Assembly: GCF_000703045.1 (NCBI RefSeq)
Contig: NZ_JNLJ01000001.1
Coordinates: 959,501 to 1,023,500, forward strand
Reading direction: 5' to 3'
Length of the DNA: 64,000 bases
DNA from: Persephonella sp. IF05-L8
GTDB lineage: Bacteria > Aquificota > Aquificia > Aquificales > Hydrogenothermaceae
The stretch's first letter is position 1. Each line of letters starts with the position of its first letter. Of this stretch, positions 42,167-59,744 are shown one piece after another. Position numbers and translations under genes: made by a program. Under the pieces are notes generated by a model. That model ran no database searches. It was not told the DNA's origin and saw only the letters and a list, made by a program, of their open reading frames with translations.

Positions 42167-42661
42167 ATGGCTGAAGAAAAAGTTAGCAGACGGGACTTCC
42201 TCCTGTATGCCATGGGAGGATGGGCTGCTGTAGGGCTTGGCGGTGTTTTATACGCCATGTATAAAACATGGGAGCCTTTACCAGAAGTAAAAGCAGCTGG
42301 TATTGTCAAGTTTGACCTTTCAAAAGTAGCACCTGGACAACTTAAAGTTGTTCAGTGGAGAGGGAAGCCGGTCTTTGTTCTACACAAAACTCCGGATATG
42401 AAAAAGTGTGATAACAGGACTATAGCAGGGGAATACACAGTTGTTGTTGGAATATGTACCCACCTGGGTTGTATTCCTAACTGGGAAGCTGATAAAAAGA
42501 TATTTAAATGTCCATGTCACGGTGGTGAATTTGACGCCTGTGGAGTAAACATATTTGGTCCTCCTCCAAGACCTCTTGAAATACCTCCATTTAAACTGGA
42601 AGGGAAAACTATTGTTTTAGGGGAAACAGGCCCCGAATACGAAAAAATGATGAAAGGTTAG
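42167..42661 (+). CDS. petA: Rieske iron-sulfur subunit of cytochrome bc1
   Basis: This 164-aa protein has a twin-arginine-like N-terminus (SRRDFLLYA, Arg 8-9) with one membrane helix as anchor, then a Rieske domain: CTHLGC (about 97-102) and CPCHGG (about 115-120). Cys97, His99, Cys115 and His118 should hold the 2Fe-2S cluster; the other Cys pair forms the usual disulfide. It passes an electron from quinol to the c-type cytochrome. GAGGAGG precedes the ATG. First gene of petABC. Confidence 0.97.
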   Translation: MAEEKVSRRDFLLYAMGGWAAVGLGGVLYAMYKTWEPLPEVKAAGIVKFDLSKVAPGQLKVVQWRGKPVFVLHKTPDMKKCDNRTIAGEYTVVVGICTHLGCIPNWEADKKIFKCPCHGGEFDACGVNIFGPPPRPLEIPPFKLEGKTIVLGETGPEYEKMMKG

Positions 42662-42672
42662 GAGGATAGGTG

Positions 42673-43878
42673 ATGGAGAAAAAAGGCGGATTAATGGAAT
42701 GGCTTGATAAAAGGCTCGCCGTCAACGCTTTGTGGCGAGTGTTAATGTCAGAGTATTACATTCCTAAAAATATTAACTGGTTATGGAGTTCTGGTGTTCT
42801 TACTATTCTGGTTTTTGCTATTCTGGTGGTTTCTGGAATATTTGTACTTATGTATTACAAACCTGATGCGAAACTTGCTTTTGATAGTGTAAACAAGACA
42901 ATTATGCTTGATGTTTCGTTTGGTTGGGTGTTTAGACATGTTCATGCTGTAGGTGCATCTATTATGTTCCTGGTTCTATTTATTCATATGGGTAGAGGTA
43001 TTTATTACGGTTCATATAAAGCTCCCAGAGAAGTTCTTTGGGTAACAGGTTTTATCCTGTTTGTCTTAATGTCTGCTACAGCTTTCACCGGATATCTTCT
43101 CCCTTGGGGACAGATGTCTTACTGGGCTGCTCAAACTATTACAACATTATTCTCTAAAATCCCATTTATTGGACCTGACCTTGTTATCTGGATTAGAGGT
43201 AACTATATAGTTGCAGACGCTACACTAACAAGGTTCTTCGCATTACACGTAACATTATTGCCAGCTCTTATTGCTGTATTTACTGCAATTCACCTGTATG
43301 CTCTTAGAATAGTTGGTTCTAACAACGAAGATGGAATACCAATGACAAAAGAAGAAAAGAAAGAAAAAGGAATTCCTTTCTGGCCTGTATTTATGTCTAA
43401 AGAATACTTCATTATGTCATTATTCCTGTTCTTCTTCTTCTATCTTGTATTCTTTAACTACAACTTTGCTATGGACCCAATTAACTTCCAGCCTGCAAAC
43501 TATTTACAAACACCACCTCACATTTATCCTGAATGGTATTTCCTTTCATTCTATGAAGTATTAAGAGGATTTTTCTTTAGTGAAACACTGGGACTTATAG
43601 GATTTGTACTGTCTATGTTTATACCTTTATTCTTACCATGGTTAGATACTTCTCCATATCCTTACGTAAGTGGTAAACACAGACCACTTTTCAAAATCAT
43701 GTGGTGGATTTTTGTTGCTGATTTTATAGCACTAACAATACTTGGTAAGCTGCCACCTACAGGCCTGTTCGCATGGCTTGGTTTTATAACATCTATTATT
43801 TACTTTGTATTCTTCCTTTCACTTCCAATTATTTCAGCAATTGAGAAAAGAAAGGCAGCTTCTGGAGGTGGGCAATAA
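42673..43878 (+). CDS. petB: Cytochrome b subunit of the bc1 complex
   Basis: The protein (about 401 aa) has eight or so membrane helices. Seen: heme-binding His pairs in FRHVHAVGASIMFL with FIHMGRG, and FFALHVTLLPALIA with FTAIHLYALR; GYLLPWGQMSYWAA; and PEWYFLSFYEVLRGFF (PEWY at the quinol site). It is a full-length fused b, not a split b6/subunit IV. A GTG at 42670 is in frame; GGAGG at 42661-42665 fits the ATG at 42673. It is 8-11 nt after petA and overlaps petC by 1 nt. Confidence 0.97.
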   Translation: MEKKGGLMEWLDKRLAVNALWRVLMSEYYIPKNINWLWSSGVLTILVFAILVVSGIFVLMYYKPDAKLAFDSVNKTIMLDVSFGWVFRHVHAVGASIMFLVLFIHMGRGIYYGSYKAPREVLWVTGFILFVLMSATAFTGYLLPWGQMSYWAAQTITTLFSKIPFIGPDLVIWIRGNYIVADATLTRFFALHVTLLPALIAVFTAIHLYALRIVGSNNEDGIPMTKEEKKEKGIPFWPVFMSKEYFIMSLFLFFFFYLVFFNYNFAMDPINFQPANYLQTPPHIYPEWYFLSFYEVLRGFFFSETLGLIGFVLSMFIPLFLPWLDTSPYPYVSGKHRPLFKIMWWIFVADFIALTILGKLPPTGLFAWLGFITSIIYFVFFLSLPIISAIEKRKAASGGGQ

Positions 43879-44729
43879 TGAAGGATTTAAAAATATTTAT
43901 AGTTATAGCAATTATCGTAGGGATAACCTATTGGGGTATAGAGCCTTTAGCACATGGTATTATGCATAAGCATATAGAGGAAGCTATAGAAAAATATCAC
44001 TTGCCAGATTATAATTTCTCAGACCTGGGACCTACCCCTCCTTTAGATGGAAATGCTGAACAGGGTAAGCAAAACTTTCAAATGTTTTGTGCTTCCTGCC
44101 ATGGACTTAAAGCTGATGGAATAAAAGCTCCAATGGACCCAAAAACTGCAGCTGCATCTTTTGGTGTAGTTCCTCCTGACCTATCTAATGTGGCTTCATT
44201 TACAGATGAAAAATTCCTTTTCCACTTTATCAAAGACCCTGCAAAGGCGTCTGAATTTAAAAAGATAGCTATGCCTGCAATGGGACTTAATGATGAACAA
44301 ATTGCAGATATTATTGCTTATCTCAAATCAACAGCTAAAAAATTAGAAGGAAAAGAACTTGTTAAAGAAGCCTGTGGAAGATGTCATAGTATTAAGTATC
44401 AGAAAGTATATGCAGAAACTCCACCAGAAAATCTGAAAAAATATCTTGGTAAAGTTCCTCCTGACTTATCTATAATAATGAAAGCGAAAGGAGAAGAATA
44501 TATTGCAGCTTTTATTAACAAACCTCAGGCTCTTTTACCTGGAACATCTATGCCAAGGGTAGGATTGAACAAAGAAGCTACAGAAGAAACTCTTAAATAC
44601 TTAGAAGAAATTGCTGACCCTCACAAAGAACAAAGACAAAAAGTTGGAATTATTGTTCTGGCTTATATGCTTGTTATGATTGGCCTTACTTATGCATGGA
44701 AGAAGAAAATCTGGAAAAATCTTCACTAA
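43878..44729 (+). CDS. petC: Di-heme cytochrome c subunit of the bc1 complex
   Basis: The 283-aa protein has an N-terminal membrane helix (about 5-20), two cytochrome c domains with CASCH (71-75) and CGRCH (166-170), and a C-terminal membrane helix (about 252-272). AMPAMGLN and TSMPRVGLN supply the axial Met ligands. A di-heme c in place of classical mono-heme c1 is known from Aquificota and Campylobacterota-type bc1 complexes. It is the last gene of the operon, followed 8 nt later by a terminator. Confidence 0.93.
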   Translation: MKDLKIFIVIAIIVGITYWGIEPLAHGIMHKHIEEAIEKYHLPDYNFSDLGPTPPLDGNAEQGKQNFQMFCASCHGLKADGIKAPMDPKTAAASFGVVPPDLSNVASFTDEKFLFHFIKDPAKASEFKKIAMPAMGLNDEQIADIIAYLKSTAKKLEGKELVKEACGRCHSIKYQKVYAETPPENLKKYLGKVPPDLSIIMKAKGEEYIAAFINKPQALLPGTSMPRVGLNKEATEETLKYLEEIADPHKEQRQKVGIIVLAYMLVMIGLTYAWKKKIWKNLH

Positions 44730-56000: not shown

Positions 56001-56288
56001 ATAAAAATATAAATTTTTCTTCAGGTTACATGGAAAACGAATAGGGATATTAGAATAAATATATTAAATATAAGTCTCTTTTTCTTGCATTTTGAATAGA
56101 AAATATATTTCTATGTAAGTTGGCTTTTTACAAGGATTAGTGAGAATATAATAGAAAATATATTCGCATTAATGGAGGTCTGATGCAAATTAATACCTCC
56201 AGCGAAGGTTTTAAAAAATTTTTAAACCTCTGCTAACCCTTGAACCACACTTGCCAAATTAATTTTTTTTACTTAACCTAATTAACGC
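56001..56288 (+). other. Probable CRISPR leader region
   Basis: This very AT-rich, non-coding 288 nt lies before the first repeat. It holds a 15-nt direct repeat (AATAGAAAATATATT at 56095-56109 and 56150-56164), of which the first is nearly palindromic, and a hairpin with TGGAGGT (56173-56179) and ACCTCCA (56195-56201). The truncated last repeat at the other end and the repeat-base change both support placing the leader on this side. No gene is seen here. Confidence 0.6.
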
Positions 56289-57167
56289 GTTTTATCTGAA
56301 CTATATGGGATAGAAACTGGAATGTTTGATGGAGAAAGACAAGATACCGACCGTTTTATCTGAACTATATGGGATAGAAACGAATAGCTGTTGTAGTGTT
56401 TTCTAAGGAGTGATAAGTTTTATCTGAACTATATGGGATAGAAACTTTGGATACAAGAAAATAGATGATGTTTTAGATGGAGTGTTTTATCTGAACTATA
56501 TGGGATAGAAACTCCCTAAACATAAGAAAAACACCCCTAAAAACCTCTATTGTTTTATCTGAACTATATGGGATAGAAATATCTATTAAGGAGGAAAGTA
56601 TGTCAAAAGAAAATAAGTGGTTTTATCTGAACTATATGGGATAGAAATAAGTTCTGCAAGTTCATCTTTAAATTTTGCATTAGCCGTTTTATCTGAACTA
56701 TATGGGATAGAAATCGTTCGTATTTAGTTCTTGATATATCTTCCAGAGTTGTTTTATCTGAACTATATGGGATAGAAATTTCTATTTTAGTTGTCATCTT
56801 TCTCCCTCTGCTAATTTGTTTTATCTGAACTATATGGGATAGAAATCGTTCGTATTTAGTTCTTGATATATCTTCCAGAGTTGTTTTATCTGAACTATAT
56901 GGGATAGAAATTTCTATTTTAGTTGTCATCTTTCTCCCTCTGCTAATTTGTTTTATCTGAACTATATGGGATAGAAATCCTTTTCTTATACTCTTTCTTA
57001 CTTCTTATTCACATAAAGTTTTATCTGAACTATATGGGATAGAAATGATGATTATCCGAATATTGCTTTTCCTAATTGGTTAAACAGTGTTTTATCTGAA
57101 CTATATGGGATAGAAAGCGATAATACCTCCAGACGAAATATATCTAAGCTTAGAGTTTTATCTGAAC
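56289..57167 (+). CRISPR. CRISPR array, 13 full repeats and one truncated repeat
   Basis: The 28-nt repeat begins GTTTTATCTG and ends GGGATAGAAA; a 29th base follows the same rule (C after repeats 1-4, T after repeats 5-12, G after 13). Repeat starts: 56289, 56353, 56417, 56484, 56552, 56620, 56686, 56751, 56818, 56883, 56950, 57018, 57089; all 13 are identical over 28 nt. A 13-nt remnant (GTTTTATCTGAAC) at 57155-57167 ends the array. Spacers are 36-43 nt counted from the 28-nt repeat. Spacers 7 and 9 are identical, as are 8 and 10. No cas gene lies in the window, so the array is served by Cas proteins elsewhere. Repeats with such an end are common in type I-B and III systems, but type cannot be assigned here. 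Confidence 0.98.
56686..56949 (+). repeat. Tandem duplication of a two-spacer unit within the CRISPR array
   Basis: The 132-nt block 56686-56817 (repeat 7, spacer 7, repeat 8, spacer 8) is followed by a matching block 56818-56949 (repeats 9-10, spacers 9-10). The spacers are the same base for base as far as read. This is a duplication by recombination between repeats, not four separate acquisitions. Confidence 0.93.
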
Positions 57168-57744: not shown

Positions 57745-58551
57745 TTACTTAAGCCCAAGAACGTCCATCATATCATAAAGACCAGCAGGCTTATCTTTTA
57801 TCCATTTAGCCGCTTCAACTGCACCTTTTGCAAAAATATCCCTTGAACCTGCCTTATGGGTAAGCTCTATTCTTTCCCCCATTCCAGCAAATATCACAGT
57901 ATGTTCGCCAACAACATCACCACCCCTAAGGGCAAAAACAGCTATTTCATCATCAGGACGACCATTTTCATATATACCTTCTCTGCCATAAATAACATTT
58001 TTTATTCCTGTTTCTTGCTTAAGAATATCCACAATTTTAACGGCTGTTCCTGATGGAGCATCTTTTTTGAACCTGTGGTGCATTTCAATAACTTCTATAT
58101 CGTATCCTTTCCCTTTTAGTGCCTTTGCAGCTTCCTGAACCAGCTTAAATAAAAGATTAACCCCAATACTCATATTTGGAGCAAGAACAATTGGAATATC
58201 TTTGGATAACTCCTTAATTTCTTTTAGCTGGTCTTCTGTCCAGCCTGTTGTGCCTATGACCATAGCTTTTTTATTTTTGTCTGCTGCCGCTAACCTTACA
58301 TGGCCTAAAACAGCCTCTGTATTTCCTGCAAAGTCTATTATTACATCACCTTTATCAATGATTTTTGCAAGGTCAGATACAATAGGAGCATCTATATTTT
58401 CTCCCAGTATGTCCCTTACATTATCATGGGAGTGAACACAATCCGGGCTTTCAACCCCACCTACTATCTCAAGATTTTTGTCCTCAAATGCAAGTTGGGC
58501 AATCCTCTGCCCCATTCTGCCAAGTATTCCAGAAATTATAACCTTTACCAT
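57745..58551 (-). CDS. dapB: 4-hydroxy-tetrahydrodipicolinate reductase
   Basis: The 268-aa enzyme of lysine/diaminopimelate synthesis has ISGILGRMGQRIAQLA (NAD(P) loop), VIGTTGWTEDQLKEI, APNMSIGVNLLFKLV and EMHHRFKKDAPSGTAVKI (catalytic His and Lys). Length is normal. It lies 1 nt after the 86-aa gene upstream and 9 nt before atpI. Confidence 0.97.
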   Translation of the reverse strand: MVKVIISGILGRMGQRIAQLAFEDKNLEIVGGVESPDCVHSHDNVRDILGENIDAPIVSDLAKIIDKGDVIIDFAGNTEAVLGHVRLAAADKNKKAMVIGTTGWTEDQLKEIKELSKDIPIVLAPNMSIGVNLLFKLVQEAAKALKGKGYDIEVIEMHHRFKKDAPSGTAVKIVDILKQETGIKNVIYGREGIYENGRPDDEIAVFALRGGDVVGEHTVIFAGMGERIELTHKAGSRDIFAKGAVEAAKWIKDKPAGLYDMMDVLGLK

Positions 58552-58552
58552 A

Positions 58553-58813
58553 TCAGTTAGCCTGCTCCTCGTCTAATTTAAATACTACATCAGCTAATTG
58601 ATTTAATGCATCATTAACCTGGTCTGGTGGAACAATAAAGGGCGCAACAACTACGTCAACGCCCTCTTTAAATAAATATTTTTTTATCAGGTTTTGGATT
58701 TCCTCAATCTGCTCTGGAGTGACATCCTCTTTGAGAACTTCCATAGGCTCTTTTTCTGTTACGAAGAAGCCAACAAAAGCAAAAGGAAATGCTCTTTTTT
58801 CTTCAAAAGACAT
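58553..58813 (-). CDS. Unknown 86-aa protein
   Basis: This soluble, acidic protein has a hydrophobic start (RAFPFAFVGFFVTEKEP), an amphipathic helix (TPEQIEEIQNLIKKYLF), a central strand EGVDVVVAPFIVPP and a C-terminal helix. Its ATG overlaps the stop of the 39-aa membrane protein as TAATG, and dapB starts 1 nt after its stop. I do not recognise it. Close coupling with the microprotein suggests that the two act together. Confidence 0.65.
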   Translation of the reverse strand: MSFEEKRAFPFAFVGFFVTEKEPMEVLKEDVTPEQIEEIQNLIKKYLFKEGVDVVVAPFIVPPDQVNDALNQLADVVFKLDEEQAN

Positions 58814-58932
58814 TATTTTTCCTTAGTTCCCATTTTGTACATTATTGTTCCCCAGAGAACTACCAGCATTGTGAGCATGAGAACAAATAAAATTACTTCG
58901 GCTGGTGGAATTCCTCCGTATGTTGCCTCCAT
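58813..58932 (-). CDS. 39-aa single-helix membrane microprotein
   Basis: Too short for usual gene lists, but well supported: ATG at 58932-58930, preceded by GGAGGTAAAGAGGC, 39 codons, and a TAA at 58815-58813 that overlaps the next ATG. It begins MEATYGGIPPAEVILF, has one hydrophobic helix (about residues 12-32) and ends KMGTKEK. The layout (short polar start, one helix, positive end) resembles the small subunit IIa of ba3-type cytochrome oxidases, and other tiny respiratory subunits; the likeness is weak and its neighbours are not oxidase genes. Its function is unknown. Confidence 0.7.
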   Translation of the reverse strand: MEATYGGIPPAEVILFVLMLTMLVVLWGTIMYKMGTKEK

Positions 58933-58982
58933 GCCTCTTTACCTCCTTTCCTTTGAATTACTAAATATACTAAATGCATTTT

Positions 58983-59744
58983 TTATAAAAAGCAACTGTT
59001 GTATATGATATAAATACCTTCCATAGGAAGATACCTATCGTAGATATGCTCAATTCTTAATCCTCTGGAAATAATTTCTCCATTACCACCTGTTATGATA
59101 AGTTTATGCTGGTATCCATACTCTTTATTTATTTTTTCAACCATTCCCTCAATAAGTGATAAATATCCAAAATATATACCTGCTTGGATACTTTCTACTG
59201 TTGTTTTCCCCACAACATTTTCAATATTTTCTATATTTACCGATGGAAGTTTGGCTGTTTTAGAAAATAAAGCCTGAATGCTGGCATCTATGCCGGGGAA
59301 AATAGCTCCACCGTCATATTCACCTTTATAGTTAACAACGTCAAATGTAATAGCTGTTCCAAAATCCACCACAATTGCTGGATAACCGTGTTTCTTTACA
59401 GTAGCACATGCATTTACCAATCTATCAATTCCAACTTCTTCAGGGTTTTTGTAGTTATTTTGTATGGGAATTTGTATATCTTCCCCTAAAAATAAAACTT
59501 CTGCTAATTTTGTTTTTTCAAAGGCTGCGGCAATTCTCTTTTCAACAACAGGAACAACTGAAGATATAACAAAATGTTTTATTTCAGGAAATTTTTCTAT
59601 GCTTAAAATCTGGTAAAAATCAATATACCAGTCATCTGTGGTTTTTTGATGGTCGGTTTTTAGTTTGTAGCTTTTTATATTGGATATATCTGTTATGAAA
59701 CCGACTTCTACTGTTGTGTTTCCTATATCTACCCCAACTATCAT
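58983..59744 (-). CDS. coaX: Type III pantothenate kinase
   Basis: The 253-aa ASKHA-fold kinase makes 4'-phosphopantothenate for coenzyme A. Seen: VGVDIGNTTVEVGFI at the start, GIDRLVNACA, VVDFGTAITFDVV, GGAIFPGIDAS and IITGGNGEII. These fit CoaX, which needs a monovalent cation. It starts 3 nt after the amidase gene. Confidence 0.95.
   Translation of the reverse strand: MIVGVDIGNTTVEVGFITDISNIKSYKLKTDHQKTTDDWYIDFYQILSIEKFPEIKHFVISSVVPVVEKRIAAAFEKTKLAEVLFLGEDIQIPIQNNYKNPEEVGIDRLVNACATVKKHGYPAIVVDFGTAITFDVVNYKGEYDGGAIFPGIDASIQALFSKTAKLPSVNIENIENVVGKTTVESIQAGIYFGYLSLIEGMVEKINKEYGYQHKLIITGGNGEIISRGLRIEHIYDRYLPMEGIYIIYNSCFL

What the first reader, a model, noticed from the sequence alone, without database searches (positions are those of the whole stretch)
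58553..58932. Unannotated 39-aa membrane microprotein coupled to an unknown 86-aa protein
The small gene has a strong GGAGGT ribosome binding site, one membrane helix and a TAATG overlap with the next gene, so it is almost surely translated. It recalls tiny subunits of respiratory enzymes such as ba3 oxidase subunit IIa, but the operon is coaX-dapB. The pair may be a small membrane-bound complex of new type.
Basis: partly seen in the sequence, partly recalled or inferred. Interest (0 to 1): 0.52.

Follow-up and report, generated by a model that had tools for sequence, protein, structure and literature searches.

The report
Oxidase-linked membrane microprotein in Aquificota
A real, strongly conserved 39-residue membrane protein found only in one family of hot-vent bacteria travels with the oxygen-respiring cytochrome cbb3 oxidase and often sits beside a cytochrome c gene, so it is probably a small helper subunit of that respiratory chain, while the neighbouring 86-residue protein is older and separate.

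Summary
p39 (58813-58932, -) is a genuine gene: GGAGGT ribosome-binding site, one-base TA-ATG overlap with p86 (58553-58813, -), one hydrophobic helix, strong purifying selection (pN/pS 0.03-0.12 against 10 genus members other than the two nearest). Homologs are in 35 of 41 genomes of its family and convincingly in none of 95 others in the phylum.

The "pair complex" reading is not supported. 66 genomes carry p86 without p39, and the TAATG overlap exists only in the window's genus (13 of 35).

The context points to respiration. In 10 of 35 genomes p39 directly follows a mono-haem cytochrome c gene. p39 tracks the cbb3 oxidase (34 genomes with both). The one assembled dapB locus without p39 (G021) belongs to a genome with no haem-copper oxidase but with bc1 and cytochrome bd. 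A bd or bc1 subunit is therefore unlikely.

Best reading: a single-helix accessory subunit of the cbb3 branch, analogous to CcoM or CcoY but not detectably homologous. A new family of a known kind; function inferred, not shown.

The parts
58813..58932 (-). p39: 39-aa single-helix membrane protein, new family restricted to the Hydrogenothermaceae-like family
58941..58946 (-). GGAGGT ribosome-binding site of p39 (8 nt spacer); GGAGG present before all 35 homologs
58553..58813 (-). p86: 86-aa acidic, soluble-looking protein of unknown function; wider than p39 (101 of 136 phylum genomes); directly upstream of dapB in families f1 and f2
58811..58815 (-). TAATG: one-base overlap of p39 stop and p86 start (window's genus only)
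57745..58551 (-). dapB, 4-hydroxy-tetrahydrodipicolinate reductase (neighbour, not part of the proposed function)
58983..59744 (-). coaX, type III pantothenate kinase (upstream neighbour; in four other genera a cytochrome c gene lies directly upstream of p39)

Best explanation
p39 is a single-helix accessory subunit of the cbb3-type cytochrome c oxidase branch of this family. It probably sits N-terminus out (by charge distribution), next to CcoN/CcoO or to the membrane-anchored mono-haem cytochrome c that feeds them. There it would stabilise the complex or dock the cytochrome, as CcoM, CcoQ and CcoY do for other cbb3 oxidases. Shown here: the gene, its selection, its family range, its adjacency to the cytochrome c gene in four genera, its coupling in presence and absence to the cbb3 oxidase, and the mismatch of bd and bc1 distribution. 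Inferred: physical binding, orientation, and the stabilising or docking role. p86 is a separate gene of wider range in the phylum that shares the gene cluster with dapB.
For: Adjacency: p39 follows a mono-haem cytochrome c gene (lipoprotein signal in 9 of the 10 by the script's rule) in 10 of 35 genomes, four genera: G013, G017, G024, G030, G018, G025, G019, G026, G034, G036. The same cytochrome c family is fused to the C-terminus of CcoO/FixO in three genomes of one genus and one of another. Co-occurrence: 34 of 41 family genomes hold both p39 and the cbb3 CcoN; G016 and G018 hold p39 and cbb3 is their only PF00115 match. Of five genomes with CcoN but no p39, four also lack dapB and the fifth ends inside dapB, so the locus is simply not assembled. 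The only assembled p39-less locus, G021, has no COX1, a haem-less remnant of the lipoprotein, no p39 and a p86 fragment; it keeps bc1 and bd. The cbb3 cluster has FixO and what look like split FixP parts but no FixQ match at E <= 0.01. p39 is 90-97% identical across sampled genus members, as CcoN and CcoO are (95-98% and 86-98%), while p86 spans 56-95%.
Against: No protein-level evidence. p39 is never in the ccoNO cluster in the clusters read. The G021 loss is one event, possibly one deletion, and it took most of p86 too. Most p39 genomes (25 of 35) have no cytochrome c gene beside p39. The cytochromes beside p39 are not one well-supported clade, and the CcoO-fused domains are unresolved against soluble ones. 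The nearest other cbb3 cluster, in four f2 genomes (g16), comes without p39. A family-wide gene tracks any family-wide trait; G108 has p39 but no CcoN was found (fragmented assembly, also no bc1).
Confidence: 0.5

Rival explanations
1. p39 is a homolog of subunit IIa of B-type (ba3) haem-copper oxidases, kept or recruited as a helix of an oxidase in this family.
For: A clean profile of six IIa peptides from f2 ba3 loci ranks p39 copies at the top of 13,604 small ORFs (best E 0.083; best non-p39 0.23); hhalign probability 44%, aligned from the proline before the helix.
Against: PF08113 finds nothing over its cut-off in 61 genomes and lists no p39 locus at E <= 1; none of 24 p39 sequences hit it. 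One of ten helix-shuffled controls reached 32% probability. G016 and G018 have p39 but no ba3-type oxidase.
Confidence: 0.12
2. p39 belongs to another membrane complex of the family (for example bc1, cytochrome bd as a CydX analogue, or a denitrification enzyme).
For: CydX-like proteins are of the same size (recalled); bc1 is present in 36 of 41 family genomes.
Against: G021 keeps bc1 and bd but lacks p39. G011, G014, G017, G018 and G024 have p39 and no bd match. The 768-aa COX1 protein (probably quinol NO reductase) and the ba3-type one are absent from G016 and G018. Other denitrification enzymes were not tested.
Confidence: 0.18
3. p39 and p86 form a small membrane-bound complex of new type.
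For: Neighbours in all 35 loci, overlapping in the window's genus; both lost or truncated in G021.
Against: 66 genomes have p86 and no p39; gaps up to 344 nt between them; p86 keeps to dapB instead; p39 and p86 evolve at different rates.
Confidence: 0.07
4. p39 is a free regulatory or stress-type membrane microprotein unrelated to respiration.
For: No protein partner shown; position in a housekeeping gene cluster in the window's genus.
Against: Cytochrome c adjacency in four genera and absence in the lineage without haem-copper oxidases.
Confidence: 0.13

Closest known systems
CcoM, 36-aa subunit of Pseudomonas stutzeri cbb3 oxidase
   Same: Single transmembrane helix of about 36-40 residues; proposed attachment to a cbb3 oxidase (PMC10433244 and PMC8267372, passages read)
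   Different: No sequence match: profile A1 finds no PDB chain at E <= 10. p39 is tied to a cytochrome c gene and a dapB gene cluster in a different phylum; CcoM's own sequence was not compared directly
CcoY (Cj1485, 33 aa) and CcoX (Cj1486, DUF4006) of Campylobacter jejuni
   Same: Tiny single-helix proteins needed for full cbb3 activity (PMC8267372, passages read)
   Different: Encoded between ccoP and ccoH; p39 is not in the cco cluster and shows no DUF4006 hit at E <= 1; CcoY not compared directly
Subunit IIa of ba3 oxidase (CoxIIa, PF08113)
   Same: Length, proline before the helix, tryptophan near its end; weak profile similarity
   Different: Below PF08113 threshold; not beside ba3 genes; present in genomes without ba3
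CydX-type subunits of cytochrome bd
   Same: Size and single helix (recalled)
   Different: Distribution does not follow cytochrome bd

Membership tests
CoxIIa (PF08113) | Match to the family profile over its curated score | tested here: not met
   0 of 61 genomes over cut-off; no p39 locus listed at E <= 1; none of 24 p39 sequences
CoxIIa (PF08113) | Encoded with ba3 subunits I and II | tested here: not met
   IIa ORFs precede subunit II in six f2 loci; p39 does not, and G016/G018 lack a ba3-type COX1
Accessory small subunits of cbb3 oxidase (CcoM/CcoQ/CcoY kind) | Single transmembrane helix, 30-60 residues | tested here: met
   Maximum 19-residue hydropathy over 1.6 in all 24 sequences, 37-45 aa
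Accessory small subunits of cbb3 oxidase (CcoM/CcoQ/CcoY kind) | Occurs with a cbb3 oxidase | tested here: met
   34 of 35 p39 genomes have CcoN; the exception G108 is a fragmented assembly
Accessory small subunits of cbb3 oxidase (CcoM/CcoQ/CcoY kind) | Sequence match to a known small cbb3 subunit (Pfam families, solved chains) | tested here: not met
   No such Pfam hit among 24 sequences at E <= 1; no PDB chain at E <= 10
Accessory small subunits of cbb3 oxidase (CcoM/CcoQ/CcoY kind) | Present in the purified oxidase | not testable with these tools
   Needs biochemistry
CydX | Occurs with cytochrome bd | tested here: not met
   p39 without a bd match in G011, G014, G017, G018, G024; bd without p39 in G021

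The most novel reading that the evidence does not exclude
p39 is the membrane dock for a lipid-anchored cytochrome c in a C-type (cbb3) oxidase whose CcoP is split in two: a IIa-like helix serving a cbb3 enzyme, an arrangement I know of in no other cbb3 oxidase (recalled, not searched). Lineages where the adjacent cytochrome differs (g2/g6) also have a changed p39.
Probability: 0.2. Interest if true: 0.6.

Novelty: new member of a known kind. Interest (0 to 1): 0.42.

Why it matters
Respiratory oxidases keep yielding tiny subunits that annotation missed. p39 adds a conserved one in a family of microaerophilic thermophiles, encoded away from the oxidase cluster, where operon-based searches would not find it. 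It makes a clear biochemical test possible, and shows that such subunits can be traced through a neighbouring cytochrome c gene.

Tried and rejected
p86 was pursued as a known fold or family. No Pfam or NCBIfam match reached its cut-off (other members had best E 0.0029), no PDB sequence match was convincing (best E 0.04), and an AlphaFold2 model from 11 sequences (mean pLDDT 77.8) had no fold match (best E 2.7). Its function stays unknown; a link to DapB is only positional.

A first, iterated IIa profile pulled in p39 at high score. I rejected it because untrimmed upstream residues and p39 itself contaminated the profile; the clean repeat is the one used, and it is weak.

A domain-fusion argument (cytochrome c beside p39 = cytochrome c fused to CcoO) was tested with a tree. 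The tree does not place the fused domains with the p39-adjacent ones, so it is used only as evidence that this cytochrome family serves the cbb3 branch.

bc1 and bd were considered as partners and set aside by distribution. p39 was not sought outside the phylum except in Pfam, NCBIfam and PDB. No paper on p39 or p86 turned up in searches (listings only, apart from the papers named as read); this is not proof of absence.

Full report
Observation. The finding is real. On the minus strand p39 runs 58932-58813 and p86 58813-58553, sharing one base (TA-ATG), inside a same-strand run amidase, coaX, p39, p86, dapB, AtpI-like gene. GGAGGT lies eight bases before the p39 start. p39 has one hydrophobic helix (residues 13-31), no K/R before it and three after, which by the positive-inside rule suggests the N-terminus outside (orientation inferred).

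Conservation. In 61 genomes (the window's own and 60 relatives), p39 alone matched 32 at E <= 1, a few of them chance. A profile of 24 sequences finds 35 of 41 genomes of the window's family (f1; named loci call it Hydrogenothermaceae, with Persephonella nearest) and nothing convincing in the 95 other genomes of the phylum searched (best E 0.0126 inside a 264-aa frame). Five columns are invariant: E12, L20, L26, W27, M31. Against the window copy, pN/pS is 0.03-0.12 for the 10 genus members other than the two nearest (G006 0.04 at pS 0.27; G109 one synonymous change and no other); over all 300 pairs of the 25 distinct sequences with the ME-T-GG start, mean pS is 0.69 and mean pN 0.13 (the 'MQELF', 'MENW/MQNW' and 'MEYLG' types were left out of that count). 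A GGAGG site stands before all 35 starts.

p86 is another story. It is in 101 of 136 phylum genomes: 35 in f1, 59 in f2, 7 in f3. None of the 66 in f2 and f3 has a convincing p39. In f1 and in the f2 loci that I read it lies directly upstream of dapB; in the f3 loci read it does not. The one-base overlap with p39 occurs in 13 of 13 p39 copies of the window's genus and in none of the other 22, where the gap is 9-344 nt. p86 has no convincing family, PDB or fold match. So the two genes are neighbours, not an obligate pair.

Respiratory context. In 10 of 35 genomes (genera g2, g6, g7, g8) the gene directly upstream of p39 encodes a mono-haem cytochrome c, nine of ten with a lipoprotein-type signal by a simple rule in my script. 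Lipoproteins of this cytochrome family stand elsewhere in the genome in sampled g1 and g9 members, and the same family is fused to the C-terminus of CcoO/FixO in G015, G028, G022 (cut by a contig end) and G016. G004, G014, G023, G029, G033 and G035 showed neither, as far as hit lengths and the CcoO proteins tell (no complete CcoO of G033 was read). A tree of 33 such domains is largely unresolved; the g2/g6 cytochromes beside p39 form their own clade (99/99), those of g7/g8 lie elsewhere, and the CcoO-fused ones do not group with either.

Which complex? The family's cbb3 cluster reads di-haem cytochrome c, ccoN, ccoO, a 98-aa and a 74-aa membrane protein. Pfam finds COX1, FixO and, below cut-off, FixS and FixP_N, so CcoP seems split; there is no FixQ match. 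A published metagenome study also reports type C cbb3 oxidases in Sulfurihydrogenibium and Hydrogenobaculum (PMC3665934, passages read). Of 41 family genomes, 34 have p39 and CcoN, one (G108) p39 only, five (G010, G020, G031, G110, G111) CcoN only, one (G021) neither. In the five, dapB is missing (four) or cut by the contig end (G111), so the locus is not assembled. G021 is 99% complete with dapB intact. Just upstream stand a 100-aa lipoprotein with the usual signal and linker but no haem motif, no p39, and the last 26 or so residues of p86; the genome has no COX1 match at all. It keeps bc1 and cytochrome bd. Conversely G011, G014, G017, G018 and G024 have p39 without a bd match, and in G016 and G018 the cbb3 is the only COX1. 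Among the respiratory complexes tested, only cbb3 fits. The weight is limited: G021 is one event, and one deletion could explain all three gene losses there.

Against this: p39 is never inside the cco cluster in those read; the related cbb3 of four g16 genomes does without it; and 25 of 35 p39 loci have no cytochrome gene beside them.

Rates. p39 of G000 is 90-97% identical to that of seven sampled genus members, like CcoN (95-98%) and CcoO (86-98%), while p86 is 56-95%. In g2, g5 and g6 p39 drops to 38-43% although CcoN there stays at 91-93%; in g7/g8, with more divergent CcoN (87-89%), p39 stays at 72-79% (23 genomes compared). So p39 does not follow the species clock; in g2/g6 the adjacent cytochrome differs too. 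I read this as a change of partner or interface, a suggestion only.

Relation to known subunits. CcoM (36 aa; PMC10433244 and PMC8267372, passages read) and CcoY (33 aa; PMC8267372, passages read) are the closest functional analogues: single helices needed for stability or full activity of cbb3 oxidases. No homology was detected: no relevant Pfam hit among 24 sequences and no PDB chain at E <= 10, though CcoM and CcoY were not aligned directly. PF08113 membership fails.

Verdict. p39 is a real, new small membrane protein family limited, as far as searched, to one Aquificota family, most likely an accessory subunit of the cbb3 branch of respiration. Its function is inferred from context and distribution, not shown.

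Noticed in passing
window 56287-57124 (+): CRISPR-like array, 13 copies of GTTTTATCTGAACTATATGGGATAGAAA at 64-71 nt spacing, with an exact 132-nt tandem duplication of two repeat-spacer units (56686-56817 and 56818-56949).
   Followed up: partly
L187, L188, L189, L133 (CcoO ORFs): CcoO/FixO carries an extra C-terminal mono-haem cytochrome c domain in three genomes of genus g4 and in G016 of g5; the other CcoO proteins read lack it.
   Followed up: partly
L129 4582-8080 (G000, outside the window): The cbb3 cluster appears to have a split CcoP: a separate di-haem cytochrome c upstream of ccoN and a 74-aa FixP_N-like membrane protein at the end.
   Followed up: partly
window about 42167-44729 (+), from L230 4168-6730: Rieske-like, cytochrome b and a two-haem cytochrome c gene (bc1 complex) lie in the same window, about 14 kb from p39.
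   Followed up: no
window 58553-58813 (-) and 101 phylum genomes: p86 is an uncharacterised conserved family of this order, beside dapB in two families; its role is open.
   Followed up: partly
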